A stretch of DNA of 64,000 bases from Romanomermis culicivorax (Eukaryota; Nematoda; Enoplea; Mermithida; Mermithidae). Each line of letters begins with the position of its first letter. Position 1 is the stretch's first letter. The stretch lies in NCBI GenBank assembly GCA_963922205.1, contig CAWUHX010000372.1, positions 1 to 64,000 on the forward strand, given 5' to 3'. The notes below the pieces were generated by a model that saw only the letters and a program-made list of their open reading frames with translations, searched no databases and was not told the DNA's origin. The position numbers were made by a program, and so were the translations under genes. Shown piece by piece: positions 3,776-64,000 of the stretch.

Positions 3776-4047
3776 GATTTCCTACAAGTAGTATATATTA
3801 ATGTGCTGATATCCTTTCCTAAAAATCGCTATATGGCACAGAAGTTGCATAATTTCCCATTATCATTTGCTCAGTAAACGTGTCAAAAAGAGCAGTGAGT
3901 AATTCCTCAGAATCACACATTCTACAATTTTTCTCGAATTAGTACAAACTACTGGGGAGAGGATGAAGTCTACCAAAATTTTTTGCTATAGTGAGCTGTT
4001 TTTATGGGGGTAGTAAATGAATTTCCAAATCTAAGATGGGGGTAATA

Positions 4048-4078
4048 CCCCCCCCCCCATACCCCCCGCCCCCCCCCA
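4048..4078 (+). repeat. C-rich low-complexity tract near the right end of element B
   Basis: Runs of C broken by ATA and G occupy 31 bases. The sister element has a much shorter C run at the same place (about 19,146-19,153), so the run has expanded or contracted since the copies diverged. It may be error-prone in assembly. Confidence 0.8.
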
Positions 4079-7646: not shown

Positions 7647-8118
7647 CTAAAAAAGAAGTAAGATCAAATTATTATAGGTAGAAAAATGTGTGGCACCAAA
7701 AATTTTAATTTGACCAAAGTTACCCGCCAAAATATGTGACTAAAGTTACCCACCCTGGCCAAAGTTTCCCGCCAACCGGCCAAAGTTTCCTGCTTTTGGA
7801 CCAATTTTTTTGCTCAAAAATGGGTAGTTATTTTTTTGTACAAAACAGAAAAGAGAAACTCTCTAAAGACACTTAATTGTTAGTGAAAGTTTTGAGTGAT
7901 GCAGATGAGTGGAACCCAAATTTTTTTCAATTTGAAAATTTTCATTAAAAAAATGGCAACTTTATCCACCCACAAATTTCTCAATTTTATTTGGATTTCA
8001 ATTTTCTTTCACAGTAACATGCACTGATCACTTAGATATTAGTGTGCCAAGTTGTATCTGCATACCTTACATGTTGAGGCAACCTTTTCCCGCTACTCGG
8101 GGCTTCAGTAAAAGTTAG

Positions 8119-8191
8119 GCCCGGTCTGGGACTTGAACCCAGGACCTTGCGGCTACCGTCCCCACGCTCTAACCAACTGAGCCAACCGAGC
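8119..8191 (-). tRNA. tRNA-like domain, copy 1 (SINE head or tRNA pseudogene)
   Basis: The minus strand folds by eye as a cloverleaf: acceptor GCTCGGT with ACCGGGC (one G-T pair), D stem GCTC/GAGC, T stem CTGGG/CCCAG. The anticodon stem has one mismatch in this copy only (TGGGG against CCGCA). The loop ACGGTAG would give anticodon GGT (threonine), but position 33 is C instead of the usual T. Its place inside a repeated unit argues against an ordinary tRNA gene. Confidence 0.45.
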
Positions 8192-8347
8192 AGCGGGAAA
8201 GGCGCTCTCTTTTTGCAACAATTCGTAGTTGAGGTGGCTGCTTTGGCCACTCTCAACATCCCTCCGCCGTCGAGTTTGACGGACCGTCAAGGGCCACCAG
8301 TGTTGAGGCAACCTGTTCCCGCCACTCGGGGCTTCAGTAAAAGTTAG

Positions 8348-8420
8348 GCTCGGTCTGGGACTTGAACCCAGGACCTTGCGGCTACCGTCCGCATGCTCTA
8401 ACCAACTGAGCCAACCGAGC
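8348..8420 (-). tRNA. tRNA-like domain, copy 2
   Basis: Same fold as copy 1, with a perfect seven-pair acceptor stem (GCTCGGT with ACCGAGC). The anticodon stem reads TGCGG in copy 3 but TGCGG with a T-for-C neighbour change here. Internal pol III promoter boxes are kept. This copy is the best candidate for a transcribed RNA among the three. Confidence 0.45.
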
Positions 8421-8577
8421 AGCGGGAAAGGTGCTCTCTTTTTGCAACAATTCGTAGTTGAGGTGGCTGCTTTGGCCACTCTCAACATCCCTCCGCCGTC
8501 GAGTTTGACGGACTGTCAAGGGCCACCAGTGTTGAGGCAACCTTTTCCCCGCTACTCGGGGCTTCAGTAAAAGTTAG

Positions 8578-8650
8578 GCCCGGTCTGGGACTTGAACCCA
8601 GGACCTTGCGGCTACCATCCGCACGCTCTAACCAACTGAGCCAACCGAGC
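8578..8650 (-). tRNA. tRNA-like domain, copy 3
   Basis: Acceptor, D and T stems can all pair, and the A and B boxes are the same as in the other copies. The loop carries one base change relative to copies 1 and 2 (ACCATCC on the plus strand instead of ACCGTCC), which would alter the anticodon. Drift in the loop with kept promoter boxes suits a SINE head better than a decoding tRNA. Confidence 0.4.
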
Positions 8651-8778
8651 AGCGGGAAAGGCGCTCTCTTTTTGCAACAATTCGTAGTTGAGGTGGCTGC
8701 TTTGGCCACTCTCAACATACAGAGGAAAAATTCGGCGATGTTTCAAGTGAAACTGACCAAAGTTACCCCACTTTACCT

Positions 8779-18163: not shown

Positions 18164-19166
18164 CAGAGGTCCCCAAGGTCGAAAATTTAAGTAGGGGTAA
18201 AATCTTAAATTTTAAGGGTAGTACTTGAAATATACCGTGACCTTTTTTTTTGCTCTCAACTTTTTGCTAAGGAGGGGGGAGTTGTAGTTTCTCGAACTTA
18301 CAAAACTGATTAATGCCCCTACTTTATGCTTTTTACAGTCAAAAAACATTTACTATTTTAACTCCATTTTCCAGCTCCCAATCATGCAACTTTAATGCAC
18401 TAATTATACGTACAGAATAGTCACACTTTGAAGACTGTTGTGCCAACTGATTCCTGCACATTTCAAGAATCAGGCACAACAGTTTGGAAACATTGTTTCA
18501 ACCAGCATCTTCAGCAGTATGGGCTTATCCTATCACTGATTAGGCTTGGAACAGTGCTTCCAATTGAGAGTCCTGATGCTGAATGTGGCTTTAGTATTAT
18601 TAATCCCATTACACTATGAACTACGAGTTTGAAACCAAGTACCACTCCTGATCCACATCAACAGGCCTCACATGTCTCAACTCATAGCAGGAAAGTATGC
18701 CACAGCTTGGGTAACCATATGCGCACAGAAGACCCAACACAGAAGCAGGGAAAAGGAAAGGAGAGCATGAAGAGGCAGAATTTTAAGAACATAATGTTTT
18801 TCTTCCCAAGTGGCGATTTTTTGATTAATCACATATACATAAGTCATTATTTCATCTCCCAATTATATTTATAATGATTTCCTACAAGTAGTATATATTA
18901 ATGTGCTGATATCCTTTCCTAAAAATCGCTATATGGCACAGAAGTTGCATAATTTCCCATTATCATTTGCTCAGTAAATGTGTCAAAAAGAGCAGTGAGT
19001 AATTCCTCAGAATCACACATTCTACAATTTTTCTCGAATTAGTATAACCTACTGGGGAGAGGATGAAGTCTACCAAAATTTTTTGCTATAGTGAGCTGTT
19101 TTTATGGGGGTAGTAAATGAATTTCCAAATCTAAGAGGGGGTAATACCCCCCCATGGGGTGCTCTG
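18164..19166 (+). mobile_element. hAT-like element B2 (full-length copy of family B)
   Basis: The ends are CAGAGGTCCCC and, inward from the right, CAGAGCACCCC. The 8-bp duplication TTTTACAG is exact (18,156-18,163 and 19,167-19,174). Its 1,003 bp are collinear with B (1157-4091) minus the A insertion. Transposase C-terminal remnants lie at 18,428-18,700. Confidence 0.9.
18428..18700 (+). pseudogene. hAT transposase C-terminal relic in B2
   Basis: The frame reads TTVWKHCFNQHLQQYG then LIRLGTVLPIESPDAECGFS, followed by a frame change to a segment with HQQASHVSTHSRKVC. It parallels the relic in B at 3,384-3,775. It looks like the hAT dimerisation region, but the internal deletion leaves no catalytic core. 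Confidence 0.45.
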
Positions 19167-20678
19167 TTTTACAGTATGGGAGGAATTCATTGCAGCACCA
19201 GTAATCTTTTGGTAAATGTCTTGGTGATATACTGGGTCTTTACTGGTAGAAATTTTGAGATAAAATATTGGATCACTGGTGCTTTACTAGTTAATAAGCT
19301 TGGAGGCCATGACGCATTACTGGTGGATTACTGGTAACATACTTCAATAAAATACACACATACTTTTTATATGCAAGTAATCAATACAATGTTCATAGTT
19401 TTGGCCTTCAGTCTGCTTTGCGTTTTTCTCCTTGACAAAAATATGGGCATCCGCCATCGTCATGAATATTAATGAATGAAAAAGCATTTACTTGTTTTCT
19501 CACCAAAAAGTTGTCTAACAAAAAAAGAACAGAAAGGAGGAATGAGTTTTTATTGTGACCATTTCAGCCACTGAGGATTTGAGCTACTGAATACTTCTAG
19601 TTAAATATGAACTGATACTTGCTTTTTAGGTTTTAGTGTAAACGGGTTTCAAGATGCATACTATAAAGTCATCAAATCAGAAAGATTATGACCCTCAATT
19701 TTCAGATAGAAGGAATTTGTGCAGTTTTTGTGTAACTTTTGTTTTCTTTTTTAACTCTCTTCGGTTTCCTACTTGGGAAAGTTGAATATTGAGCAGGCTG
19801 TGTTCAGGCAAATGACAGTCCAGGGGAACAGTTTTTTGACAAAATATCTTATAGTTCATTATGCTTATAATTCCTTCTGAGAACCACAGTGAAAGTTATT
19901 TTTAGCTTTTATCAAAAAGATGATTATAGGTGTGCATTAAAGTTTGAGGCATACTGAGATGTGATCTATTTTTAAATGTAGAAAAATCATAATTCCTTCT
20001 AGTTTTCAACCCGAATTTAAATATACTTAAAGGCTGATGTTCTATCATGTTCATGCCTATAAAAAATAGTGGGTATTTAATTTCTGATGTGTGTCTTGAT
20101 TTGGCCACAGGCACATTTCAGCAACCGAGACTGATACAGTCTTTGTTTATGGAAGTTTTCTGTAACTTCAGGCACCAATCCTTTTTTAGTTATTATTTCT
20201 CATGTAAAGTTTAAACAAGTCAGTTCAAGTAATATGGTAATAGTAGAATGAAAAAAATGTACATTTTGATTGCTTTTGGAAAAATTATCAATTCAAAATA
20301 AAAATGGATAAATACAAACAAATTAGTGGTGGATAAATCAAGACAGAGATCAAAACATCACATTGATGCATGCAGTGTCAGTTTAATTTCACTAAAATTG
20401 TACAGTAGCTTTGATGCTAAGTGGCAGAAGCAGATAGAAGGCTTAAATTGCAGACATTGTATTGATTACTTGCATATAAATAGTATGCATATGTATTTTA
20501 TTGAAGTATGTTACCAGTAATCCACCAGTAATGCGTCATGGCCACCAAACTTATCAACTAGTAAAGCACCAGTAATTCACTATTTCATCTCAAAATTTCT
20601 ACCAGTAAGTACCTAGTATATTGCTAAGACATTCACCAAAAGATTACTGGTGCTGCAATGAATTTGTCCCCTACTGTA

Positions 20679-21410
20679 TATCTTTGAATAATGACATTTT
20701 CAAGAAAAACACATTAATTAATATTTGTGTCAAACTCAAAACAAAAAATGCTGACAATATTTACCCTAGTAATATATGGATGTTAAATAACAACACATTA
20801 AAACTCCATTTCAAGACAAGAGAGAAGCATGATCAAGCTGTAATAATGAAATATAATATATTCAACTTAAAAGTAGAAGTTATCAAGCCACATCCACCTC
20901 GAATTACAAAAATTCTAAATTTAGGACATTTATATGGTAATACCATACCAGAATATGTTAAGCATTCTGAAGTAGAGAATTGGCTAACAATTGAATTCTC
21001 TGGAATTATAATTGCCGATGATAATACAAAATTTTTGTCAATCAAAGATTGCAAATTGATCCATTCCAATGTTCAAGCCATTGAAATTGAGATTACACCA
21101 GATCCCCGGTGTTTTTTGGTTTCATGTTCAACCAGTGATTAAACCTTTTAAATTACAACTCTGGTTTTATGGCATTGAGACTTATTGCCGAAAATGTATG
21201 CAGCGAGGCCACATGCAGAAAGATTGCAGTGTTACTTATGAAAACCTTCCTAAACCACCAACAAACATTAAATCCTTGCCATCTGTTACTGCAACAGTAA
21301 AATCAACACAAGTTGGTAATCGAACACCTTCAGAGTGTTCATCAGTAGCAATTGTTGACTCTGACTTATCAATTTCAAAAATCAATGTCATAGAAAAAAC
21401 ACATCGATGA
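20679..21410 (+). pseudogene. LINE ORF1 (nucleic-acid-binding, CCHC zinc knuckle)
   Basis: The frame open at 20,679-21,142 (SLNNDIFKKNT to EIEITPDPR) passes with a frameshift near 21,120 into the frame ending at 21,410. The second part has YCRKCMQRGHMQKDC, a CX2CX4HX4C zinc knuckle, as in Tx1-type ORF1 proteins that bind element RNA. The N-terminal piece is at about 18,047-18,160, beyond the MITE, with an in-frame TGA there. It ends in TGA at 21,408-21,410, overlapping the ATG of the next ORF as ATGA. Confidence 0.7.
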
Positions 21411-21703
21411 ATAATTACCCCAATCTATTTAATTTTATGTTAATGTCCAAAAAATGGGACTATATACCGTTTTACACTTACAAATGTATTTTGTCAAACC
21501 ATTTCCTGTGTAAATTTACCATCCATGGTCAAACCTATAAGAGTACAGAACATTACTTATTTGCCCAAAAGGCCAGTGCAATGAATCTTCCGGAGAAAGA
21601 AAATCAAAGTATAAATTGTGATAACACAGCTATAGTAAAGCGACTTGGCGAACAATTCGATTGGAGCAACATGACAACAGCTTTGACCAAATTTGCTTCT
21701 AGG

Positions 21704-23354
21704 TAGAGCTTCACACGACAAAAATTTTGTACCCGGGTACCCGTTTATTCATTACCCAGGTACCCGAATTACGCGGGTATACCCGGGTACATGTTAAAAT
21801 GAGTTGTAATGTTAATGTACATATATAATATTAGACAGATACACTGTGAAAATAGAATGATGCATTACACACACTCTGTAGTCCCTACTACATAATATTT
21901 TTCAACACTTGTGTTGAAACACTGGTTGTGTTGTTGTATACAATAGGCTGCATAAGTATGTATATTGCGAATATAATGCAAGAGATGATGATTGATACAC
22001 ATCATCGAGGCACCTACGCTGCAAAATACTACACATCACATCACGATAGCTCAATATTATTGACGAGACAAAGCAAAATTTGCATACCTCCAGGGTTTTT
22101 TTTGACCTACAAGTCACAAGCCCAGTGGCTTGTTGACCTTAAATTTTACAAGCCATTCCAAATTTTTGCAAGCCAATTTTATAATATCAGTATACGTGAA
22201 TAAATTTCAATGCTAGGTTATTTTTTAAAGAAATGTATATATTGAGCATCATGGCAATCGATCGAAAAAGAGATGTCATTCAACATTTATTCAATAACAT
22301 TTTAGAGCCATTAATTCATTAAAATTCAGGAAACATTTGAAATTTTTGAGTTTGATTGAAGTCTAATCTACAAGCATTGTGGAAGAAATTTTCCAGCAAA
22401 CTATCCAAGAACATAATGACTTTGAATTACATGAGAAATCGATGGTTAAGTCGTCTATGATGACAAGTGAGAGCCCAAAAAAGGTATTAATCTTTCCTGC
22501 CTGAAACGCCGGAAAATTTTTTTGGGTATTGACATTCTGCGATACTGGAAAATCAATTTTTCAACCACTTGTTTGAAGAATTAGTTTCAAATTTTCTGTT
22601 CAAAGGTCGTAATTTCTAGAATTTCATGTTTGAAAAATTTTAAAATCATTAATTTATTCACACACTCTAATGAACTTGGCCAAATAGATATGATCAAGAA
22701 ATGTAGAAGTTTCCGAAAACTACTTCCATGAAGCTTTTGGATTGATTTTGCATTGAGAAAGGAATAACCACTTCAAAAAGTTTACAGAATTGATGTATTG
22801 ATCTTTCTCAAAAAATGTGTCAAGGGAAAAATGTGAATCTTCATTAAATATCAAGATGAAATATTGAAGATTACCAATTAAAACATGAGATAATATGTTT
22901 AAGATGATTAAAACTGTTAAAGATTAAATGATAAATGAAGGTAGACATGTTAGAAGCAGCGCCTGAGCTAGGAAATAAATAATAATGCTTATTTAAGTTA
23001 TAACCAGCATGAAGCGCCAGAAAATTTTGAGATTATGACCTTCTAAAATGCACCAAAATGCATCTTTTCTGTATCCGATATGATCAAACACATGACTCAA
23101 AAAATTCTGACAAGCCATTTTTGCTTGTTGGACTAAAATTCTACAAGCCATTTTGTCAGTCCAACAAGCCATGGCTTGTAAAAGGCTAAAAAAACTATGC
23201 ATACACCTCTACTCTCAAGTCTACATATTATACGCGATACAAAATGGGTACCCGAATTACCCGTGTACCTGGGTATACCCGGGTACCCAGGTAATGGTTT
23301 TCATTTTGTACCCGGGTATACCCGGGTAATTCGGGTACCCGGTGTGAAGCTCTA
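21704..23354. mobile_element. hAT-like non-autonomous element N1, splitting the NADAR ORF
   Basis: The inverted ends are TAGAGCTTCACAC/GTGTGAAGCTCTA. The target duplication CTTCTAGG/CTTTAGG (21,696-21,703 and 23,355-23,361) has one base lost. Both ends carry runs of GGGTACCCG and ACCCGGGTA words. Another element (N3, 22,091-23,199) seems nested inside. There is no coding sequence of its own. Confidence 0.8.
22091..23199. mobile_element. Probable hAT-like element N3 nested in N1
   Basis: Ends CAGGGTTTTTTTTG and, inward from the right, CATAGTTTTTTTAG, with flanks CATACCTC and CATACACCTC, which could be an 8-bp duplication with a 2-bp change. Inverted CAAGCC/GGCTTG words cluster at both ends. 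The middle (22,330-23,080) is family R sequence. Confidence 0.5.
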
Positions 23355-23727
23355 CTTTAGGACATTATACGAGGCCAATTGGTATAAGTATTCCCAGTTG
23401 AAGCATTTACGTCATACCTTTTTTAATATGCTCAATTATGAATTAGTCAAAACAAACCCTTTGATCAATATTGAGGTATTGGTATTCAAATGGAGGATCC
23501 TGGTATTAACAACCGCAATAACTGGGGAGCCAACAATTTGGGCAAAATTTTGATGAAGTTACATGACCAGATGGGATTGAATTTTGAATTTCAAAAAGAG
23601 GCAGAGCCATCGACTCATTTTTTGAATGGGCAAGTTAAAAGAGGCCCGGAAGTTTTGTCACCTAATGTAAATGATAGTCAGCAGCCTACAATCTAAACAA
23701 TCTGGTCTGAATTTTCTAACCCTGCAT

Positions 23728-24539
23728 TAGTGCTCCACAGCGGGTACCCAGGTAGACCTGGGTATCTGAGTTAATTTTCTGAATGAAACCCGGGTGCTAC
23801 TGGGGTAGACCCAGGTACCAAGGTCTCAACAAGATATTGTATAAACCGAATATTTATATACTATTACTTGTATTTATGTGCAGTTACAGTGAAGGAACAT
23901 GTTTTCCTGTACTAATTCAGTGCATTTATCTACTCAACGTGTTAAAAAGGCCACTTATGGCTCTCAAAAAGTCACTGTAGCATATTTTTAGCAACAAAAA
24001 ATCAATGTGTATTAACAATGAAGCACGAAACAGAAATATAAAAAAATCTTTGAGAAATTGTGCCTATGTGAAATATTGGTACTCGATACAGTATGAGAAA
24101 ACAATAAAAGTTGTAGAGATGCATTATGTATAAGATTGAAGAGGCATAAAAACAGATGATGATGGACCAGTAGAGATGGCTAAACCCATTCCTGGTGGGA
24201 TATCATTCGTCAAATAGTTGTGATGGGTGACCAGGTCACCACAATTTGCTTAAAAGAGTAAGAAATTTTGAAATATCAATTTTCTTCAAACAAAAATTTT
24301 TTTTTTTGAAAAAAATTTGTTTGAAGAAAATATATTATTGGCTTTCCTAACTTCTGTTTATTAGCACTTTGCAAGGCTCATGCCTCAAAATTTATGAGTT
24401 TTCTGAAAATTTTCATGGAGTGTGTTTATTCACTGACTTTTTAAATACTTGCATATAAAACCCAGGTATATCCAGGTAGCCAAAATACCTGGGTAACCTG
24501 GGTACCCAGGTCCTAGAATTTTGAAAGTGTGGAGCACTA
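23728..24539. mobile_element. hAT-like non-autonomous element N2
   Basis: The inverted ends TAGTGCTCCAC/GTGGAGCACTA are perfect and the 8-bp duplication CCCTGCAT is exact (23,720-23,727 and 24,540-24,547). GGGTACCCAGGT words near both ends relate it to N1. A central hairpin has 15-bp perfect arms (24,280-24,294 and 24,316-24,330). It sits between the NADAR ORF and ORF2. Confidence 0.9.
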
Positions 24540-24609
24540 CCCTGCATTAATCTAAACAGTTTGACTTAGCTTTTTTATTTTTTTTCCAACAACTGCTAGA
24601 CAAGGGAAT

Positions 24610-27140
24610 ATGCTCAGAGTAGCAACTCTGAATTGTGCAGGGTTATGGAGGAATGACTTGAAACTGAGAAAAATTTATGAGCAAACAAAAGATATAGATA
24701 TTCTAGCTTTACAGGAAACACATTTTAAAATTAAAAAAGATTCATTCTTTTTTAAGTGTACTTTTGAGAAATATTTTGCTTATAAACTTTCTTCTGCTGA
24801 CCAAACTGTACTGGTACAGCTTTATTAGTTAACCATACTTGTAGATTAACATTGGAGAGAAACGTTTTTGAAATGAAAGGCAGGGTACTAGCATATCTTG
24901 CAGAACTGGAAAAGAAAAAGTTTTATATTATGGTAATCTATGCTCCTGGGAAAGAAGCTGATAGAGCAAATTTTTGTGACAGTCTTCTCAAAAAAATGAA
25001 TGATTCCTTCAGGCATCATGATGAAGCAATCATCCTAGGCGACTTCAATTTTACAGAATGTGGTTTTCTTGATAGAGATTCATTTAGAGGCAAAGAGTAA
25101 GAAAAAGGAAAAGAAGAGTTTGAGGCTGTGAAAAGTAAGCTGGGATTATATGACATTTTTCGCTTGAACCATCCAAAGCTGAAAATTTTTACACTTATTT
25201 CCAATGCTCATAAGTCTGCTTCAAGAATTGATAGAATTTACACCACAAGAATTTTGTCTGACTCTTTCAAGAGCTACAGAGTATTGGACCTAGGAATAAG
25301 TGGAACTCTAGGAACTCTTTATGGTAACTATCAAATTAAATTTTTTGCTAGTTACATTTGGACCTTCTTTTTGGAAAATGAATGTTAGTTATCTTAGTAC
25401 AAAAGAAAATGAGATCATAAAAGAAGTTAGGAATTATTTCAAGAAAAATTTTGAAGATCTTATGGAAATCTCAGGCAAATCCTTAATTAATAAATGGGAA
25501 AGTTTCAAAGTAAACATAAAGCAGGATTTTATATATCTCAAAAAGAAAATTGATAAGAAGAATTTTAGAATAAGGAAGAATTGTGAAAACAAAATGAGTG
25601 AGATAAGAGAAAAGTTGAAATGTACTAACCAGGATCTGGGATTAAGAAAAAAATATAGAAAAGTTAAGAATGAGTATAAAATAGTGATCAAGGGTTTAAT
25701 TAATGAAAAGCTGAGTAAAACTCATTATCAAGACATTTTTGCTGATAGATGTTCACCTGCAACTGCAAAAGTTTTGCGAAAAAAATCTGCTGAGAATAGA
25801 ATAATAACTTCAGTCAGGACAGAGTGTGGTAATATATTAGAGGATCAATTAGAAGTTTTAGAAGAGTATAGAAGACAATATGAGAAGTTTTTCAAAACAG
25901 TTGGCATAAGTAGAGAATACAAAGAAATTTTCTTGGAAGAAAAATCGATTAAAATGGTTTCTGAGGATCAAAACAAGTTACTCAGAGAAGAATTTTCAGA
26001 AGAAGAAATTAGAAAGGCAATTTTCTCATTCAAGAAAGGAGAATCACCTGGAAGTGATGGAATTCCTATGGAGTATTATCAAAAGTTTATTGATTCTTTG
26101 GTACCTATATTGAAGAAATTATTATCTATTATAAATGATTCAGGTAAGATGACTAATACAATGTATCATAGTATTATATCTCAGATATATAAAGGAGAAC
26201 TTGATAAAGTCTGAAAGAAGTATAAAATTTTGGCAAAAATCTTGGTTAATAGAATGAAAAGTATCATGCCTGACATTGTGCATAAAAACCAGACATGTGC
26301 AGTGAAAGGAAGAGATATTAGAGGTGGACTGTTATCTATCTATAACTTGATTCATTATCAAAAGGAAACAGAAAAAAATCTTTAATTTTATCCATAGATC
26401 AAATGTTAGCTTTTGACATTGTTGAATGGGACCATATCTTTGGTACTTTGGTTTTTTTCAACTTTGATCCAAAATTCATACAATGGATAAAAATAGTTTA
26501 TAATTTAGGGGAATTGCAATCATCAGTATTGGTCAATGGCTATGAAACTTTTCCATTTAATGTAGGCAGAGGAATAAGACAAGGCTGTCCTTTATCACCT
26601 TTGATTTATGTGCTTGTATCAGGGACAGTATGCAATTACATCAGAAAAAATAGTGTAATAAGAGGATTACAAGTTCTAGGGAAAGAATTCAAGATAAATT
26701 GTTATGCTGATGATACAAATTTTTTCTTGACAGATTAATCAGTCAAGAAAATTTTTGATGTGTATGAAATGTTCAGAAAAGCCTCTGGGGCTACTTTGGA
26801 AAAGGAAAAGACTAAAATTCTTTGCATTGGTGACATGAAAGAAAATATTCCACATGAATATAAAGACTTCCTTGTTGAAAAGATGAGAATCTATGGAATC
26901 TACTTCAATAAGCAGGGAGCTGAACAAGATGAAAATGTTAATGCATTGAAAGAAGAAATCAGTAAATTTAGAGGAAACCTAGCATCAAGTAAAATTTCAT
27001 ATTATGCTAGAGCTAAAATTACTGATACATATTTTTTGTCTAAACTATGGTATTCAGCCTGGTTTTGTGACATAAAGCCGGATTTTGTTAAATACATTGA
27101 AAAATTTGCTACAAAGTTAAATTTTTGGTTGCTTTTATGA
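24610..27140 (+). pseudogene. LINE ORF2: AP endonuclease and reverse transcriptase
   Basis: The start MLRVATLNCAGLW is followed by ALQETHFK, ILGDFNF and SRIDRIYTTR, the signatures of an APE-type endonuclease; the final S-D-H motif is lost (GISGTLGTLYG). The linker and fingers at 25,321-26,214 contain KKGESPGSDGIPMEYYQKF. The palm has SIDQMLAFDIVEWD, GIRQGCPLSPLIYV and CYADDTNFF (YADD catalytic pair), then a thumb-like frame 26,760-27,140. Breaks: TTATTAG stop near 24,827, TAA at 25,098, a shift near 25,320, a stop at 26,212 and shifts to 26,403 and 26,739. The usual C-terminal domain is absent. Confidence 0.85.
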
Positions 27141-28349
27141 TTTTACAAATCAAGTGGCATGCTTTCAATATGATTTTTTTGCATTTCGTCTGACTATGAA
27201 AAATGATTGAATTGAATGCAAAATCAGACCAGTTATCAGCGAAATAAATGTCGAAAAGATTCATTTTCCAGTGTTGTAGTATCAAAAATTGAAAAAAACG
27301 TCTGGCAATTCATGCCCTAAGTCTGTTTACAAATGTTGTTGTTTCGCCCATACATGTAAGCAGGCCCCAAGGTCTGGGGGGTTGAACGACTTTTTTTGGG
27401 CCGGGGGTCAGTAATCCTCAAAATTGGGGGGGGGAGGGCCCCAAGGGAAAAAAATCGATTTTTTTCACAAAAAAAGTTCAAAAAATAGTAATTTTTTCCA
27501 AAAAAGATGGAAAAAATGTGTTCATGGTGCGAAGCACCCAGGAAATTCACATATATGTCACAGAAAAATCACAGACCATTTTTTGTTCAAAAATTGACAT
27601 TTTCCATCAAAAAACTAATATTTTTCAGTATTTTTCCGGCTAGAACTATAGGCCTTCCTATGGCTACCATATGGCTAGCCGATTGGAAAATCCTGGAGGG
27701 CAGTTGCCTAGCCATATGGTCGACGATTTCTGGGGAGGGTTTCCATAGCACTCCCCCCCCCCAATTTGTACATGTATATGGTTCCGCCCAAATTTGTGAA
27801 ATATCATTGACTTCAAGCTGATTTCTTAGCTGGTTAGCAGGTTGAAAAGATTGGCACATTCTTCAAGCATGAACATCATTAGGCTGAAAAATCGAATTTC
27901 AAATCATGAAATAAGTATTTAAAATACCCATCCTAAAACGCTCTAGAGTATGGGGATCAGAAAATAAAAAAAAATGATTCATGTGCAGTCTATTATTTTA
28001 CATTTTAACTTTTAACAGTAAGATTTATGCTTCCTAGTTCTACTGGTAGTTTTAACGTTTTGATTGCAACAAAACTCCTTTGGCTAGATGTTGCGCGAAT
28101 GAAGCTTGTAGAAGATCGTTCAATGTGTTTTACAAAAACTCCTCACAGAAAATGAACGCATTCAATAACTTGGAGACATAATACGTGTCAATTATTTTTG
28201 CTCGTGCATAATAGGAAACATTGAAACTAATAGTCTTCGTTTTAATCTTCTCAAATTCATTAGAAATACATACCATTAAGGTTTTCCAAACTACTAATGC
28301 CTAGTTTATCGAAATAGATTCAATAAATTTTAATCTTTTCTATAGTAAA
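27141..28349. other. Repeat-derived stretch with a hairpin and GCGAAGC motif
   Basis: 27,353-27,560 resembles 39,100-39,300 (a G-rich lead, then AAAATCGATTTTTT and a GCGNAGC hairpin at 27,527-27,539). A 13-bp perfect inverted repeat lies at 27,666-27,678 and 27,708-27,720. No gene was recognised. Confidence 0.5.
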
Positions 28350-30060
28350 ATCCTTATAAATATCAGGAACCTGATAATTTACAACATTTCCAAAAAGTAA
28401 AATTTTTGTCTTTACTTTTTTAAAAGTTGCATCAGTAAGCTTTTGAAACATTTCATATGCTTAAAAGATTCTTAGTACAGATTGAAAATCTCCAGCGAAG
28501 AAGTTTGTGTCATCGGCATAATTGCATAGTTTTACTGATTGGATTAAAATTTTTATTCCTTCAACTAAATTATCCCTACTAATAAAATTACTAAGTAACC
28601 TCAGAAACCAAAACATAGATTAAAGCCGAAAGTGGACAACCTTACCTAATTCCTCTACTGATTTCAAAAGGGAATGTTCCATAACCATTAATCAATAGAG
28701 ACAAAGTTAGGTATCCACTTTTGTATATCATTTTGATCCAGCTGATAAATTTTGAACTAAAATTAAAATACTCTAAACTAGAATTTTAGTCAAAGTTTTA
28801 TAGTCAACATTTAACATGGACATTGGAATCCCATTGCTTCTGTCAGTTTTGTCACTACTATCATTTCCTTTATGAATTTCAGAAATGATACTATGGTGCA
28901 TGGACTCACAAAGTTTACCTTCTTTAAACATGGTCAAGTAAGCATATCTTAAAACAGGAACTAGGTAATCTAAAAATTTTATGTGAAATTCTACAGGAGA
29001 CCATCGTTACCTGGAGACTTATCTTTTTAAAGGCTTTTTAAAAATCTTCATTGTCACTTCCTTCCACTGTATTAGGAGGCTAAAAAATAGTTGATGTAAA
29101 AAGCGACAATACTGATTATTGAATTCGCTCAAGACTTCTAACTGATCTTCCAAAGGAGTACCATCTAGCTTTTTAATGCTAAATGTTATTTTATTTTCAG
29201 CGGATCTCTCTTGTAACATTTTTGCTGTTGCAAGAGAATCCATCGGAGAGGATATCATGGTAATGAGTTTTCCTTAATTTGGCTTTAATGCCAGACTTAG
29301 TTAAAATTTTACGTTCATTTTTACTCTCTTTCAAACATTTCGAACATTCGAAGTTTCCTGGATTTTCCCTTATTCTGCCTTGGAATACCTTTATTCTACC
29401 TTCAACGTTTATTTTCTTTCGACAAAAACTTTTTTGCTGTAGTCTTTTAATGCGGGCAAATTCCCATCAACTGTAAAATTTGCCCATTTGTCCAGTGAAT
29501 TTTCAGCAGACTCACTATTTACTGTATTCGAAAGCTTTAAAAAGTGCTTTCGATCAATTCATTTAGCTTTTGATCCTTTGTTTCTAATAGACTTACATCC
29601 ATTTTCCAAAAGGATGGACCAATTTTTTCATCAAAAAATTTTTTGTTAAAGTTAATAACAAAACATTTATGATCACTAAGAATCAGCAAGTAGTCGACTT
29701 GAATAAATTCCATCTATGTATTCGAGAGCCAGTTTTTATGAGCATGTGAAATATGGGTAAACAACTTTAACTTTGGGTTATGAAATCTAAAAACATAAAT
29801 ACAAAAGATTCAGTTTATTTTTAATCGACTCGAAAATATCAGCATCAGTTTCGTTTTGTTTAGAATTTCTTGAAAAATTTCGATCTAGGTCCCTATTTTC
29901 AACAAAATTAAAATCATCTAGCACTAAAATTTCGTCATAATCTCGAAAATTAGTGGAAATATCCTGGTAGAGTTTTTCATAAAAGGTTTTTTGGATAAGT
30001 GGTATAATTTTCCAATCAAAATCATTTTTCTTAATTGGATAAAATGCAAAAAATTATGTT
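28350..30060 (-). pseudogene. Second, antisense relic of the same LINE type (ORF2)
   Basis: On the minus strand, from right to left: an endonuclease block at about 29,900-29,960 (DEILVLDDFNF), a linker block at 29,019-29,258 with TAKMLQERSAENK and LEDQLEVLSEF matching TAKVLRKKSAENR and LEDQLEVLEEY of the first copy, then GCPLSALIY near 28,640 and NYADDTNFF near 28,510. The copy is more decayed than the first; only one frame exceeds 70 codons. ORF1 and a NADAR segment were not seen to the right of it. Confidence 0.75.
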
Positions 30061-33000
30061 AAAGTATGGGACATAATTTAAAAAATCAGACAAGACCAGA
30101 CATGCACGGCAAGAATTTTCTAGGGTTGAGGGTCTTTGAGCTTTTTATCCAGGGGGTAGGGGGGTGGGTGAGCAAAAAACAAAAAAAAAAGTTCTGAAAG
30201 CTCGTTTTTCATACAAAATATGCACAAAAATCATCAAAAAAGCTGTCTTAAAAAAGTTCTGGGGGGGGGTGTTTGACGATTTTTTTAGGCCAGGGGAGGG
30301 TGGCCAGGGTATCAGGTATGGGGGTTTACCCCCCTACCCCCTATGTGCATTATGGACAAGACACCCTAGCATTGGATTTTTCAACCAGCGAAATCTATCA
30401 CTGTCCCAAACCGATGGTGTTCCTCTTTAAATCATCTGCCGAATACAAAGAAATTATTTTCCGAAAGTTCACAAATTTGTGAAAAATATCGAAAAAAATT
30501 TGATTTTCGTGGAATATATACTTAAACACAATGTCAAAGATAAAGTGATTAAACCATGAGATGAGGCATTATAGGTGGTAAGAACTATTGAATGCTAGCT
30601 AGTAAAAGAGGACATGATTACAGTCTTCCCCGAACTAGCTTATAGGAAGCGATGATCATAATAATTATTACCGTCGCGAGGCGCCAAATTTTTTTGTAGT
30701 TTTGACCTTCTAAAGTGTACCAGAAGAAGGCACGTTTTCGACTTGAAAATCCCTTTCGCCATTTCGTGGAAGAGCCCAAAATTTTTTCGTATTTTTCGAA
30801 AAAACGTGCATCATCAATTTGATTGGCCGAAAAAATTTGTCGATTTTTTTAGTTTTTTTCTGGCAAATTTTCTGGCTTAGTCTTAGGCTTAGACTTAATC
30901 TTGGGCCTGGGCTTAGGCCTAGGTTGAGGAGGAGACTTACGGTTGTAACAGTTTTTTGCTCACAGCAACGTTATTTTGGTTGTGCAGTGCAACCAAAGGC
31001 CTGACGTTCGTCCTGATTAGATTATAGGGTTTGCAGCCGGAAGACGCATAAGCGCCGAAATTACTGATATTCGAAACTATTAACACTTGTCACATTATTT
31101 ATGCTTCAGATCATTTGAAATTAATCTCATATAATGTACAACTATGACTCGTAAATTACTGGTTCCAGATATATTAGAATGATCAAACAAGCTCAAAAAA
31201 CATGAATAAAGCATCTGTCAAAATTTTTTAACCACAAAACGATTTCGCGAAAATGACGGAAAATGTTTGGTTCACGATCATCGATACATTAGTTGCAGAA
31301 AAATGAGCTAAAAAATGCGATTTCGGCGTTAAAACTAGTGATATTCCTTGGATATTTTTTGACATCTGGATATCCGGATATAGAGATCGGATATGCGGAT
31401 ATCTGGTGATTATATATGTGACAAAATCGACCTTCCTTCACTGTTTTTAATTTTATGAAAGCTAAGCTTCTAAAATGTTTTTTCATGTCGTCACTGGTGA
31501 TGATAGATATTAAAAGTTTTCCTATTTCAAATTGCCTTACGTTAACTATCATCAAGTGAGAAAAAAATACGAATAAGATTATCAGAAAAGTTAGATTGAA
31601 AAACTAAACGTTGAATATCGATGATTATGGAACATTTTTGACTCTGATTGCGTTGGTGATTGAGAAACGGTACTTCCTGAGCGCCGCGCTTCTTTCATAT
31701 TCAAATTAATAATGGTTACTATAATAGGCAGTGCGCAGAGCTGTAAAATTTAAAGATTTTAACATTTCTAAACGCGCCAGAACTGTTCAAAATTTGATTT
31801 CCAAAAAGCGTCTCCAGTTACAGGCTTCTTTCTACACGTACAAAGATCGGCCGAGAAATCTCTCTGCGAAGAAAATTTTTTATGCAACAAACACGATATT
31901 TCGTTGTTTTTTGCACAAACCTTCTTCCAAGATAGCAATTGAGTTCATTTGCTTCTGACTCAAAAGTATAGGGTTTTGAAAATGCAGCTTCTGTTCTTAT
32001 TGTTTTGTTGTTTCCTACATCATTCTGGCGCTGGGCAACAAATTTTTTTTAGACTTTTTAAAATGCTGGAAAATAAATTTAAGGATAAGTTATTCGATAA
32101 ACATACATGGTTCGAAAACATGTATATATCATTTTACAAACTGCGAAACATGTTCATACTTTCATAAGTTTGACAAATTAAAGCTGAAGTTTATGAAAAT
32201 CGCCTCCATTATGATCATGAATTCAAACTCGGCTCCATATATAAAATAATACTGACAAAAAAGGAAAAATTGAGATTTTTATCTCTCAAATGAACCAAAA
32301 TTCATCTTTTGCATGTCGAACCCCCGTATTTTTTCCCTTTGTCAAGAATTTTTTTCCCAGAAAGTTTGATTTGTTGAAAAACAGTGAATAGACTAATTTG
32401 AAAAATTACACAATAAGATCGGGCGCGAAGCGCCGGAAAATTTTCGATGATTTATGATTTTAGAGCCTGTAAAACACTTACTTCAAGTCAAAAATTGAAT
32501 GAAAATAACTACAATTCACTATGATATTAATGAATAAGTCAAAATTTAAGGACCCAAAATGGCTCCTAGACCTAAAATTTTAGGAGCCATTTCCAAACTT
32601 TTAGGGGCCCAGGCCCCTAAAATGACTAAGAAAAGCCTGGCCAGAAGACACCTTTCTATTCTTAACGGCTGACTTTTTCTTCCACATTTGTGGAAAAAGC
32701 TCAAAGTTAAAAAATCTAAAAAGCTACAAGTAAAAAAAAATTGTGCCTGTGTTTGATATATCAAGTTGATTGTATCTCAACTTGGCGCCCGTCGTGACTT
32801 AGCGTCTTGTTTTCTACTTTGGTGCCCATGGGATGGTAGAAAAATTAATTTATAGATTTCAAAGTACATTCCGTGGTTATATCGATGAAAAATTATTGAT
32901 CAAGAAAGAAAAATAATATATCTAGTTCACAAAGTTTACAAAAATCCGCCAAAGTGAATAGAGTATAATATGAAATTTGTATAATGCGATAGAAACACTT

Positions 33001-36000
33001 GAAATCACTGATCTGTTTATCTTAGTTTCTTAGTGACAAATTTCAAGTACAATCCAAGAACAATACAAAACAAAGCAATAGAAAATTATTTGCGTCTAGA
33101 ACTGAATGTGCTGAAATTTATCATCTATGTACACAGCAGACATTTTTTGAGCGAAATTATATAAATTCCAAGGATTCTGTAAAGACAGAATTTAAAAAAA
33201 GTTGCTATTATAAATTCGTTGAGAAATTTGTCTCACGTAAGAAATGGTACTGTTAATGCAGTCAGATGAAGGAAATCAGAATAAAAAAATCTGAAAAACA
33301 AGCAAAAAATGTCAATCACAGAAGAGGATAAAATAAAGACAGAAGAACTGCAAGTTTATCAATGAAAGCATAACATGTTTATCATTAGCCCTCAACTTTT
33401 TACTTGATCATTTCGCATTAATGTCATTTAAGAATTAGTTTGATATGATTTCACTTTCGCCTGTTCAACGAATCTATTTATTGTTCTGACTCTTCTATCT
33501 TCTAAAGGCCTCCAGTGAAAGGTTCCAATGTCCATATCTGTGTGAATATCCGACGAACATCTTGATGTAAAATTTTTCCTTGGGTGTGCGCCGGAAAAGT
33601 TAGTCTTGCCAGCCTGTTCATTATTTTCCTCAAAAACTCGCAAAATTCAGTTTTAAAAGTCGAAAACTGACGCCAATTCAATGAAATACAAGAAAATTAG
33701 TTTTTAATGTTTTTCCTTTGAAAATATCAATGAAAATATCAAAATATCAAATTTATCAATTTTAGAGTGAGCAACCAAAAATTCATCTGTGCAACCAAAT
33801 TTTCTTCCTCAAGGTGCACATTGCAACCTGGCCTGTGCAAAAAAGAACCCTGTATGGAAATGTTGCAGTTATTAGGTTTTTTTCGGCCAGTGAAATTGAT
33901 GATACAATTTTTTTCGACCAATCAATTTGAAGACAGTTTTCGATCTACACTGCTTCGTTCAGACGCATTGTCGTTTCTTCAAATTTCATTCCATCCCGAG
34001 CAAACATGCACATAGGGAGTGTATACGAGTAAACCCTCCTACTTGAGACCCTGGACACCCCGTGGCCCCAAAAAGTCGTCAAACACCCCCGTGAACTTTT
34101 TCGAAGATAGTTTTTTAAAATGATTTTTATGCATATATTGTAGGAAAACATTTTTTCGTTTCTTTGTGCACCCACCCCATCCCCAATGTTTTTTGTGCAC
34201 GGACATTTGTGCCGATTGACACAAGAGGTAAAAGAATTGTGTCAGTAGCACACAAAAAATTCTTCTCACTAGAAACATATCTCAAACTGCGAAAAAATTC
34301 CAGGTCAAAAGTTTGAAATCGTGCCCACCGTTCATCAACTCAATGTGACTGACCTCACCAGAATTTTCTTTTCCTCATTTTTGCAGGTTACTGACTCCAT
34401 AAACATCTGAATGTTTGGTTATGCTCCTAAAATTCGTAGCCACATTATACACGTTTAAAAAAATGTGGAAAATTTTTGGAAAATGAAAAAAGTTTTGGGT
34501 GTGGTACTCATGTGGAAAAAATCTTCGAGGAAAAACGGTGCTCCGATTTCCTTTCTTTTATTTGTCCCCACTATTTTTATGTGAAAAAGTCATGGTGTGG
34601 AATAAACCTGCGCTCTTCAAAAAAAATTTGGAAAAAATTTGGCCGTCAATGCTGAAAGGGTGTACTTGCACTGTTTTTTTTCGCATGGATCGCTGAAGAG
34701 GCAGTGTTGTTTGTGTGCCGAAAGATGGCTTTTGGCACAAAAAAATTTGAGATGGGCAAAAAGTTTTGAGCGTTTGTGCCAATTGACACAAATCTTTTGA
34801 CTGATCAAAGACTAAGTTTCCTTGATTTTTATGTATTTTATGGGCCGAAATACTGTTTTTTTCGCCAAATCTGTGTTTTTGGCGGAAAAAATCTGGAAAT
34901 GCGAAAAAATATTCTGGACACTTTCGTTAAAACGCGGAAAATTTTTTGGGGCTCGAAATCGGTAAGGTGTATTTTGGTGCATTCTAGAAGGTCAAAACAT
35001 CAAATGATTACATATTATAATAATTCTTTGCTATAATCCATCTCAGCCACGACAGTTAGCATGTCTATTTAAATCAAGATTTCTTTCATTGTTTTCCCGA
35101 AATCTTTTTGTGTTCTTTAAGAAATTTTGAATTCTGTGAACCGGCACATGGTTAAAACGTCAAAAAAACAGTGACTGAAGATCTTGTTGGTTGAAGAATC
35201 AAAATTTTGGGTAGCTTGTCTGATTTTTTAATTTGAGTTGCTTGCTTGCTTCCAATATGATTTTTGCATTTTGTCCTAGTATGGAAAATAATTGAATTAA
35301 CTGAAAAATTAGACCACTTATCCGGGAAACAAATTTTGAAAAGATTTATTTTCCGGCCTTCTAATATCAAAATCCATTTAAATTTTCGGTATGTCGCGTC
35401 GAAATTTTTTCAATAATTTTTTATGTTCCGCCCGAATTTAACGTTTACTTCAGACTCTGTTGACCTGACCTAAAAGTCAAAAATTTTATTCGTCTTAATT
35501 TATTATGAAATAGTGACTGCAGAAACGTGAAAATATTTCAATAAGCTCCAAAAACGTGAATAAATCATGCGTAAGCATTTTTGAGCGAAAAAACGATATG
35601 GCAAAAACGGCGAAAAAATTTTGACTTCTTTCGCCAAATGGCGAAAAGGTCCACGCGAATAAAACCAGTGGGCCAAAAACGCAAAAATTTTTCGGCGCCC
35701 GTGCCGAATCAGTGGTTATAAAGTGGGTATTTTTAACTACTTCTATTTGTCCTGAACGCGGGTGAATTTACTTCAAATAGTATATTCGCCGTATCGTCGT
35801 AGCAAACTTATAAGTCGTCAATGACTCATAAATAAATGGAAATTCTGAACTTCCTCTGTTCATTCAGTTGGATTGGGAACTGAAATTCTTATTTTTGGTG
35901 TTTGATTCAAATAGAAAAATTTGCATTCTTGGCTAAATTTTTCGATCAAAAACTTACGCAACCTTTGATTTAATTTTCTCAAGGAGTAAGCAACTATAGA

Positions 36001-37000
36001 CATCCTCAATTCGATCTTTACATCTAAAGAAATTAAATTACCCGACTATTTTATTGGACCTGGACCCGATATTTTCAAAATATGCTATCCGATACATCTC
36101 TATAAAATATAAACTTCCTCAACAATTCTAAGATATTGTAATTCTCACGGCGTTGTATTTTTTTCAGTTTTATTTTAGTCTTTTTTGATATGGAAAATAG
36201 AGTGACCCGATTTCTATTATACGTATATATTAGTGCAGCACAGTAAATGAAGCATTAATTACATTTTTATCAAAGTTTTGACCTGAAATTTTTTCGCAGT
36301 TTTCAGTAGTGTTGTGCGTCGGATATCCAGATATCCGGACGGATATTTTGAAAAACGGATACCCGGATATTTTCACTGTTCAAAAAAGAAGTCAAGGTTA
36401 ATGATAAGTTGGGTGCTACATCATTACACAAAGCTTCAGCAAGAAAACAACAAAAGGTTCAAATTATATAAGTGTATATACTGTTCATATACTATTCACT
36501 GGAATAAATACGGAAAATTGTTGATTTTAAATTTGTGGTGAAGAATAAAATGCCATCAAATGTTAACTAAAAAAGTAAACATAGACACGCTAACAGCCAG
36601 CCTGAGTGAGATCAAGACGATAAATATTGTTTTAAGATTTTGATTTTTAAAATGCACTCGGATCTCAAAACTCCGAAAATTTTTTTCACAGAAAGCACGA
36701 TTTGGGAGGTGAACAGTGATTATAACTGCATAAACGGATGATAAATGAAATTAGCACAATTTTTCAGCATATTAAATGCACTGAATCGAGCTTTACAATG
36801 GTTTATAATAGTCGAAAAATATCAGTTTCCGATGTTTTCATTGAAAAAATTCTGCACAAAAGGAGAAAACTCCATTTTTCCTCATATAGGAGAAGTGGAA
36901 GGTTCGAAATTCTTCCTATATTTACCAGACTGTCCCATAAGAATGGGTATGCTGGGGCATTGCCCCTACTCGAAGTCCTGAAAATTGATCACTGGGTACC
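30061..37000. repeat. Long block of dispersed non-coding repeats
   Basis: Recurrent pieces: G-rich/C-rich words near 30,250-30,345 and inverted near 34,020-34,110; family R-like segments at 30,530-30,800 and 32,400-32,480; GTGCAACC words near 30,970 and 33,790; the GTGCCAATTGGCAC-type block near 34,195-34,300 and 34,770; GGATATCCGGATAT words at about 31,355-31,405 and 36,318-36,372; and a segment at 35,890-36,000 related to 13,110-13,240. A palindrome pair lies at 32,559-32,626. I found no exon-like frame with flanking splice sites. Confidence 0.45.
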
Positions 37001-62555: not shown

Positions 62556-62744
62556 GGAACCCAGAAACTTTTTCTTTAGCCTTATCCAAACAAAAATCTA
62601 TATAATTCTTGGTCAAATCTTTTTTTTTCTCTTCCAAAAATTTCATCAAAACAGTCCGGTCGGTATACTGTAACTAAAGAAACGTTGTGTGACGTCTTTA
62701 AACGCATCGAGCGTGAAACTAGGGAACAAACCCTTAACGAAAAA

Positions 62745-64000
62745 ATGCCTCATCACGACCAAATTATAGACCCATTGGGACATGTAGTTCAGGATGCTCT
62801 CGCCACTGTTTTGGATGGGCGTCTGCGGGAGCTCGAAGCTCAAATTGCACGAAAAGTGTCCACTACTGAAGCGGGTCTAAATGAGTTAAGAATTGGACAT
62901 CTTAGGAGCGAAATGTCCACGAAAAATCGCGATTTTCCACATTTCACTGGTAGGCCCTCTGAAAATTTTGAAGAATGGGCCAAGAAGCTTGAAAAACAAA
63001 TGCTTTTAAAGGGGCTCAAAGCTGATGATGATGCCCTCAAGCTTATATTTTTGGAATTCCACTTGGATGGGGACGCCTTGGTAAAATTCGAAAATATTTC
63101 CAACTCCCCTAATTCTCCTCAGACGTACGATCAATTTAAACGGGCTCTGCTGGATGCCTTCCCTGTTGTTCAAGACACCCTGTTTCATCGTCAAATCTTG
63201 AGGGATCGAAAACAAAAACGAACTGAAACAGTAATGGCTTTCTTTAACGAACTCGAAAAATTGGGCCGGCTTGCCTATCCTAATTTTGAACTAGCTTTAC
63301 GGGAGAATTTAATTGAACCCGTTTTCCGTGAGGGTCTGTTGAGTGATATTCAAAGTGTCATCAAGTACAAACAGTACCCTGATTTAGCTGCCCTCGTTTC
63401 TGAAGCCGTATTCATAGAACGACAAATGTTGCGGGACGAAGCCAAAGTCCCCTGTCCTATGTCATATCCCTCGTTTGTCAGGGAACCAGTTTTAGCGGTC
63501 CAACATGAGGACCCTTTGAAAAATCAGGTCGATCAGCTGAGCCAAAAGTTTGACAAAATTTTGGATGAACTTCGAAATCATAGTAAAAATGAAAAACAGA
63601 GGCGTTCAGATCACAGTGTCACATGCTATAAATGTGGGAAAAAGGGGCATTACGCTAATACTTGCAAGAAAGCCCCTGACTCCCCTACGGTTCCTACGAG
63701 TTCTTCATGTTCTATTTGTAGTCGAGAAGGCCATGTGGCCTCTGAGTGTAAATCAAAATGTCGCTTTTGTAAAAAAGTGGGACATAAGCACAATAAGTGC
63801 CCTACCATAGAATGTAGGAAATGTAAACACAAAGGGCATTTGGAAAAATATTGCCCCCAAAAGTATGGTCAGAATCACAATAATGGGTTATCTATCAATC
63901 TTCTGGATAGTGACGACCCTGGAATGACCACTTTAAATCATTGTTCTGTCACAGGTCCGGTCATGTCACTAGCATACGACCCCGACTGGAGTAAGGACGA
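62745..64000 (+). CDS. Retrotransposon gag with four CCHC zinc knuckles, open at the window end
   Basis: The frame runs from ATG 62,745 to the window edge without a stop (418 codons). The frame is also open upstream to about 62,620 without another ATG. Early residues (DFPHFTGRPSENFEEWAKKL, then HLDGDALVKFEN and ETVMAFFNELEKLGRLAYP) fit the retrotransposon gag capsid region of Ty3/gypsy-like elements. Four knuckles follow: CYKCGKKGHYANTC (63,624-63,665), CSICSREGHVASEC (63,708-63,749), CRFCKKVGHKHNKC (63,759-63,800) and CRKCKHKGHLEKYC (63,813-63,854), which would bind genomic RNA. The ORF is undamaged here, so the element may be young. Pol would lie beyond the window, so gypsy versus BEL/Pao cannot be settled. 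Confidence 0.85.
   Translation, partial: MPHHDQIIDPLGHVVQDALATVLDGRLRELEAQIARKVSTTEAGLNELRIGHLRSEMSTKNRDFPHFTGRPSENFEEWAKKLEKQMLLKGLKADDDALKLIFLEFHLDGDALVKFENISNSPNSPQTYDQFKRALLDAFPVVQDTLFHRQILRDRKQKRTETVMAFFNELEKLGRLAYPNFELALRENLIEPVFREGLLSDIQSVIKYKQYPDLAALVSEAVFIERQMLRDEAKVPCPMSYPSFVREPVLAVQHEDPLKNQVDQLSQKFDKILDELRNHSKNEKQRRSDHSVTCYKCGKKGHYANTCKKAPDSPTVPTSSSCSICSREGHVASECKSKCRFCKKVGHKHNKCPTIECRKCKHKGHLEKYCPQKYGQNHNNGLSINLLDSDDPGMTTLNHCSVTGPVMSLAYDPDWSKD

What the first reader, a model, noticed from the sequence alone, without database searches (positions are those of the whole stretch)
20679..23696. A LINE that encodes a NADAR domain between ORF1 and ORF2, coupled to ORF1 by ATGA
The order zinc-knuckle ORF1, NADAR ORF, endonuclease/RT ORF2 on one strand, with the NADAR start codon overlapping the ORF1 stop (ATGA, 21,407-21,410), suggests the domain is part of the element. 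Known NADAR enzymes remove ADP-ribose from modified guanine or cleave related N-glycosidic bonds. A retrotransposon carrying one could be erasing a host ADP-ribosylation mark from its RNA or cDNA; that role is my inference. The core motifs STEHYLFAQ and NNLGKILMKL are present.
Basis: partly seen in the sequence, partly recalled or inferred. Interest (0 to 1): 0.85.

Follow-up and report, generated by a model that had tools for sequence, protein, structure and literature searches.

The report
Decayed LINE carrying a NADAR gene
A broken copy of a jumping gene carries, between its two usual genes, the remains of a gene for a NADAR enzyme, a kind known to strip ADP-ribose from guanine; such domains were already reported in oyster elements, so this looks like a further case rather than a new kind.

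Summary
The NADAR domain is real. Pieces at 21407-21703 and 23475-23693 match Pfam NADAR in complementary parts (E 6.9e-5, 2.3e-4). Against a profile built here they are the top two of 2139 six-frame segments, and 0 of 5000 shuffles reach either score. It lies between a zinc-knuckle ORF1 and an endonuclease/RT ORF2 on one strand, with no spacer before it and 93 nt after it once a later insertion is discounted, so it most likely belongs to the LINE. The copy is dead: a 1651-bp transposon-like insertion splits the NADAR ORF, which also has a frame change and a stop; ORF1 changes frame; ORF2 is broken; both ends are lost. The ATGA overlap exists, but in one decayed copy it is weak evidence. There is precedent: PMC12477816 (passages read) reports NADAR domains in ORF1 proteins of Crassostrea gigas Tx1 LINEs and in Ectocarpus Gypsy elements. 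Most likely this is another member, perhaps a three-ORF variant. Clearing ADP-ribose from LINE RNA or cDNA is inference.

The parts
20679..21103 (+). ORF1, 5' portion (first reading frame); true 5' end lost next to a TA-flanked inverted-repeat element
   Evidence: open frame segment 20609-21139; the part upstream of 20679 belongs to the inverted-repeat element
21105..21410 (+). ORF1, 3' portion in a shifted frame, with a CCHC zinc knuckle; ends at TGA 21408-21410
   Evidence: zf-CCHC E 0.0019, 18.6 bits, just below the 20.8 cut-off; frame change near 21,100 judged from the two overlapping frames
21407..21703 (+). NADAR ORF, N-terminal piece with the Glu and Lys of STEHYLFAQK
   Evidence: PF08719 profile 10-77, E 6.9e-5; TIGR02464 E 1.3e-7; phrog_1017 E 2.6e-10, a phage family of unnamed function; own profile 34.7 bits, 0 of 5000 shuffles
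21704..23354 (.). insertion splitting the NADAR ORF: 13-bp perfect terminal inverted repeats TAGAGCTTCACAC, flanks CTTCTAGG / CTTTAGG; hAT-like by recalled criteria; carries other repeats; its longest ORF has no Pfam match
23362..23474 (+). NADAR ORF, middle part, two frames, in-frame stop 23472-23474; assigned by position and by eye
   Evidence: not significant alone (1.3 bits, E 30)
23475..23696 (+). NADAR ORF, C-terminal piece, ending in TAA 23694-23696
   Evidence: PF08719 profile 130-162, E 2.3e-4; TIGR02464 E 0.002; own profile 12.2 bits, 0 of 5000 shuffles
23728..24539 (.). second insertion between the NADAR ORF and ORF2: 12-bp perfect terminal inverted repeats TAGTGCTCCACA, identical 8-bp flanks CCCTGCAT
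24610..26211 (+). ORF2, endonuclease and linker region, broken
   Evidence: ATG 24610; Exo_endo_phos_2 E 0.0029, below cut-off; segments
26346..27118 (+). ORF2, reverse transcriptase and following region; 3' end lost where a repeat shared with 35202-35372 begins
   Evidence: RVT_1 E 5.1e-12, above cut-off; LINE-1 ORF2p chains E 3e-15; repeat from 27119

Best explanation
This is a dead, end-truncated copy of an APE-type, L1/Tx1-like LINE whose family carries a YbiA/NADAR-type hydrolase gene between ORF1 and ORF2. In an intact relative I expect the NADAR protein to be made from the LINE mRNA after ORF1 by stop-start reinitiation, to stay with the LINE ribonucleoprotein, and to hydrolyse ADP-ribose from guanine in the LINE RNA or single-stranded cDNA, undoing modification by host ADP-ribosyltransferases. 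Shown: the homology, the gene order, the packing and the breakage. Inferred: membership in a mobile family, reinitiation, enzyme activity and substrate. I put the identity (a NADAR gene belonging to the LINE) at about 0.85 and the guanine-ADP-ribose mechanism at about 0.35.
For: Two co-linear NADAR matches on either side of an insertion, in one strand with ORF1 and ORF2. ORF1 stop and NADAR start overlap, and NADAR stop to ORF2 ATG is 913 nt, or 93 nt without the insertion and one duplication. The Glu and Lys of STEHYLFAQK align with YbiA E48 and K55, conserved in 15 of 16 and 13 of 16 of my references; the equivalent residues E88 and K95 are catalytic in E. coli C7 NADAR (PMC11543638, passages). 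NADARs hydrolyse guanine-ADP-ribose, including a eukaryotic one (PMC11543638; PMC11125620, passages). NADAR domains are reported in Tx1 LINEs of Crassostrea gigas and in Ectocarpus Gypsy elements (PMC12477816, passages) and in animal RNA viruses (PMC9503650, passages). ORF2 translation that depends on ORF1 translation is described for SART1 and human L1 (PMC2881922, passages).
Against: Single copy; no second copy with the NADAR ORF was found. The copy is broken and lacks two family residues as it stands: the last-strand Glu position reads Lys (by eye, on an alignment of only 1.1 bits) and the motif Trp position is a stop. The middle piece is not significant alone. Both pieces fail the curated whole-domain cut-offs and find no PDB chain at E up to 1. 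ATGA may be chance. Nothing here bears on the substrate, and no host ADP-ribosylation of LINE RNA was looked for.
Confidence: 0.45

Rival explanations
1. The NADAR belongs to the LINE but acts on small molecules (ADP-ribose signals, RNA-repair by-products, NAD-derived caps), not on the nucleic acid itself.
For: For phage NADARs a preference for soluble ADP-ribose derivatives is argued, and RNA-processing by-products are named as possible substrates (PMC9503650, passages). YbiA is an N-glycosidase on riboflavin-pathway intermediates (PMC9303266, passages).
Against: The same paper argues that NADARs of eukaryotic RNA viruses mainly target macromolecular ADP-ribose; tested NADARs hydrolyse guanine-ADP-ribose in DNA.
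Confidence: 0.3
2. In the intact element NADAR is fused to, or is itself, what annotators call ORF1; the separate ORF and the ATGA overlap seen here are products of frameshift decay.
For: The published Crassostrea gigas cases are described as ORF1 proteins (PMC12477816, passages). ORF1 here has shifted frame at least once and the NADAR frame stays open for 14 codons upstream of the ATG.
Against: ORF1 ends exactly where a plausible NADAR start lies, with about 20 residues before the domain match, and a stop lies just upstream of 21365 in the NADAR frame.
Confidence: 0.3
3. The NADAR protein has lost catalysis and serves as an RNA- or protein-binding part of the LINE particle.
For: This copy lacks the last-strand Glu and the motif Trp. 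In SNA-3, a nematode trans-splicing protein with three NADAR domains, the key residues are not conserved in the first domain (PMC9303266, passages).
Against: The first two catalytic residues are kept, and the losses sit in a dead copy, so they say little about the source element.
Confidence: 0.12
4. The NADAR is a host or foreign sequence that landed in this one LINE copy by chance.
For: Only one copy could be seen, and the region is full of nested insertions.
Against: No spacer before it, 93 nt after it, same strand and a flush start at the ORF1 stop; independent report of NADAR in LINEs.
Confidence: 0.1

Closest known systems
Tx1 LINEs of Crassostrea gigas with YbiA-family NADAR domains (PMC12477816, passages read)
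   Same: A LINE with a YbiA/NADAR domain encoded on its 5' side, in front of the endonuclease/RT ORF as far as the text says (ORF1 proteins).
   Different: There the domain is described in ORF1 proteins; here it is a separate frame behind a zinc-knuckle ORF1. I could not see the oyster sequences, so the difference may be one of naming. Tx1 membership was not tested here.
NADAR-bearing Gypsy lineage of Ectocarpus (Gypsy-12_Ec32; PMC12477816, passages read)
   Same: A retrotransposon with an acquired NADAR domain.
   [quoted passage not shown] not a LINE.
NADAR/YbiA family (PF08719, TIGR02464; E. coli YbiA, DarT1-associated NADAR)
   Same: Significant profile match in two co-linear pieces; Glu and Lys of the SEHY..QK region present.
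   Different: Encoded by a retrotransposon copy and broken; last-strand Glu and motif Trp missing in this copy.
NADAR domains of animal positive-strand RNA viruses (PMC9503650, passages read)
   Same: Domain encoded beside an element's own polymerase.
   Different: In the viruses it is embedded in polyproteins; here it is an ORF of a LINE. No sequence comparison with them was made.
Viral-helicase-carrying LINEs, TRAS and Jockey in insects (PMC5563155, abstract and outline read)
   Same: A LINE that acquired an extra enzymatic domain with a proposed counter-silencing role.
   Different: Another enzyme; the domain is fused into ORF2 or ORF1.

Membership tests
NADAR / YbiA | Significant match to the family profile | tested here: met
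   Pfam E 6.9e-5 and 2.3e-4, NCBIfam 1.3e-7 and 0.002, own profile with 0 of 5000 shuffles reaching either score; each piece below the curated whole-domain cut-offs
NADAR / YbiA | Full-length domain match | tested here: inconclusive
   profile positions 10-77 and 130-162 of 163 matched; the middle part not significant alone, E 30
NADAR / YbiA | Catalytic Glu and Lys (YbiA E48, K55) | tested here: met
   aligned; conserved in 15 of 16 and 13 of 16 references
NADAR / YbiA | Glutamate of the last strand, and Asp and Trp of the D..W motif | tested here: not met
   in this decayed copy the Glu position reads Lys (weak alignment), Asp is present, Trp position is a stop; references: Glu 14 of 16, Asp 14 of 16, Trp 15 of 16
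NADAR / YbiA | Hydrolysis of guanine-ADP-ribose | not testable with these tools
   needs an assay
APE-type LINE (L1 group) | Non-LTR reverse transcriptase nearest to L1 | tested here: met
   RVT_1 E 5.1e-12; LINE-1 ORF2p chains at E 3e-15 to 8e-15 against 4e-5 or worse for the R2-type chains
APE-type LINE (L1 group) | APE-like endonuclease in front of the RT | tested here: inconclusive
   Exo_endo_phos_2 E 0.0029 and Exo_endo_phos E 0.025, both below cut-off, for a fragment
APE-type LINE (L1 group) | ORF1 with zinc knuckle | tested here: inconclusive
   zf-CCHC E 0.0019, 18.6 bits against a cut-off of 20.8
Tx1 clade | RT groups with Tx1 in a tree | not tested
   no Tx1 reference sequences at hand
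hAT transposon (the insertion in NADAR) | 8-bp target duplication and short terminal inverted repeats | tested here: inconclusive
   13-bp perfect repeats but flanks CTTCTAGG / CTTTAGG, imperfect; criteria recalled; no transposase match in the one ORF scanned

The most novel reading that the evidence does not exclude
A three-ORF LINE lineage (zinc-knuckle ORF1, free-standing NADAR hydrolase, endonuclease/RT ORF2), the hydrolase made by stop-start reinitiation, that uses de-ADP-ribosylation of its own RNA or cDNA to escape a host ADP-ribosylation defence in animals.
Probability: 0.2. Interest if true: 0.8.

Novelty: new member of a known kind. Interest (0 to 1): 0.42.

Why it matters
If retrotransposons repeatedly recruit NADAR hydrolases (oyster LINEs and Ectocarpus Gypsy elements in print, this one here), then nucleic-acid ADP-ribosylation is a plausible, little-studied barrier to retrotransposition, and the roles of animal NADARs, described as unclear in PMC11125620 (passages), become testable through such elements. 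This window adds one case, dead, with a possible separate-ORF layout.

Tried and rejected
Searches for further copies: window self-comparison found a related LINE relic on the minus strand (28142-29984, 27-64% amino-acid identity by segment) that stops inside the endonuclease; tblastn of all nine pieces in 29800-36500 at E up to 1 gave nothing for ORF1 or NADAR better than E 0.14. Scans of viral contigs with the RT, NADAR and linker pieces and of genome contigs with the NADAR and RT pieces confirmed no relative; these scans use short exact peptides and prokaryote or viral collections, so the absence says little about animal genomes. tblastn of the N-terminal NADAR piece in phages gave 3 records (29.5% identity, E 6e-3 to 8e-3), in plasmids none; the C-terminal piece in phages none at E up to 0.1; the RT in plasmids none.

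dN/dS among copies, a Tx1 tree and a comparison with oyster or viral NADARs were not possible: no such sequences at hand. Structure prediction was not run, because the NADAR frame is split. Host identity was not established; an ephrin-like fragment only suggests an animal.

Considered and rejected: chance match; the low-scoring Pfam hits L_protein_N (0.035), DUF2452 (0.016), DUF3047 (0.058), BBE and DUF6104 are below cut-off and taken as chance.

Full report
What is in the sequence. No host genome is held for the window. Between 20679 and 27118, on the + strand, lie the remains of a LINE: an ORF1 in two frames whose second part has a CCHC knuckle (zf-CCHC E 0.0019, slightly below cut-off), a NADAR-like region, and an ORF2 with a weak endonuclease match (E 0.0029, below cut-off) and a clear reverse transcriptase (RVT_1 E 5.1e-12). 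Among solved structures the RT is nearest to LINE-1 ORF2p (E 3e-15), with R2-type proteins at 4e-5 or worse. Membership in the Tx1 clade was not tested.

The NADAR domain. The piece 21407-21703 matches PF08719 at profile positions 10-77 (E 6.9e-5) and the piece 23475-23693 at positions 130-162 (E 2.3e-4), each below the curated whole-domain cut-off of 35.1 bits. NCBIfam TIGR02464 (riboflavin-intermediate N-glycosidase) gives 1.3e-7 and 0.002, again below its cut-off; phrog_1017, a phage family of unnamed function, gives 2.6e-10 and 0.025. Neither piece finds a PDB chain at E up to 1. I built a profile from 16 phage, plasmid and E. coli NADARs; in 2139 six-frame segments of the window these two pieces rank first (E 2.1e-9) and second (E 0.013), the next at E 0.61. 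Of 5000 shuffles of each piece none reaches its score (best 10.2 against 34.7 bits, and 6.7 against 12.2), and the reversed window gives at most 4.8 bits. The part between them, 23362-23474, is not significant alone (1.3 bits, E 30) and is assigned by position and by eye.

How it is broken. An insertion with 13-bp perfect terminal inverted repeats (21704-23354, 1651 bp; flanks CTTCTAGG and CTTTAGG) interrupts the NADAR frame and supplies its first stop. A second insertion with 12-bp perfect repeats and identical 8-bp flanks (23728-24539, 812 bp) lies between the NADAR ORF and ORF2. Both look hAT-like by recalled criteria; the one long ORF inside the first has no Pfam match. After the first insertion the NADAR region runs through two frames and an in-frame stop at 23472-23474. 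On the 5' side a TA-flanked inverted-repeat element, mariner-like by recalled criteria, ends at 20676, and beyond its other end lies a repeat also found at 3900-4054, so the LINE's 5' end is lost. ORF2 loses its 3' end near 27119, where a repeat shared with 35202-35372 begins. The copy cannot make any of its proteins whole.

Is NADAR part of the element? It is on the same strand, its ATG overlaps the ORF1 stop, and its final stop lies 913 nt before the ORF2 ATG, or 93 nt without the second insertion and one duplication. That packing is what an element's own ORF would show. A single copy cannot prove it: the only LINE relative seen, a minus-strand relic at 28142-29984, ends inside the endonuclease, and scans of viral and prokaryote collections found none, as expected for an animal element. 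The ATGA overlap is weak evidence alone: an ATG overlaps 568 of 3615 stop triplets on the + strand of the window and 89 of 417 in 20680-27140, and ORF1 has shifted frame.

How it may work. The Glu and Lys of STEHYLFAQK (21542-21571) align with YbiA E48 and K55, present in 15 and 13 of 16 references; the corresponding E88 and K95 of E. coli C7 NADAR are catalytic for guanine de-ADP-ribosylation (PMC11543638, passages). The last-strand Glu position reads Lys and the motif Trp is a stop in this copy, which in a dead copy says little about its source. NADARs from bacteria, phage and a eukaryote hydrolyse guanine-ADP-ribose (PMC11543638, PMC11125620, passages), and RNA viruses carry the domain, argued there to counter macromolecular ADP-ribosylation (PMC9503650, passages). 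By analogy the intact LINE enzyme would clear ADP-ribose from LINE RNA or cDNA. This is inference; action on small molecules or a non-catalytic role are live rivals. Translation after ORF1 could use reinitiation, as ORF2 translation depends on ORF1 translation in SART1 and human L1 (PMC2881922, passages).

What is known. Literature searches for NADAR with retrotransposon, Tx1 or reverse transcriptase, for NADAR domain, for YbiA with transposable element, for DUF1768, and for Tx1, non-LTR, ORF1 and mollusc terms brought up one paper on NADAR in retrotransposons, judged from the listings (one search listed 20 of 97): PMC12477816 (passages). It reports a NADAR domain in one Ectocarpus Gypsy lineage and, from Repbase, divergent NADAR-like ORF1 proteins in several Tx1 LINE families of Crassostrea gigas, and suggests a role in processing RNA intermediates. 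So the idea of a NADAR-bearing LINE is in print. What may be new is the free-standing ORF behind a zinc-knuckle ORF1; I could not see the oyster sequences, so this may be only a difference of naming.

Verdict.

Noticed in passing
28142-29984 (-): A second, related LINE ORF2 relic, 27-64% amino-acid identity by segment to the one studied, with stops, cut off inside the endonuclease.
   Followed up: partly
8072-8718: A 229-bp tandem repeat (2.8 copies), each unit holding a predicted tRNA-Thr (anticodon ggt) on the minus strand, three in all.
   Followed up: no
62580-63998 (+): A 473-residue open frame reaching the window end with retrotransposon gag, Ty3-capsid-like and zinc-knuckle matches.
   Followed up: no
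19172-20676: A 1505-bp element with long inverted repeats (88% over about 250 bp) and TA flanks, directly 5' of the LINE.
   Followed up: partly
56490-56852 (+): An ephrin-like fragment (PF00812 E 2.3e-6, above cut-off), which suggests an animal host.
   Followed up: no
18980-19153 and 3880-4054: Two copies of a repeat, 98% identical over 155 bp.
   Followed up: no
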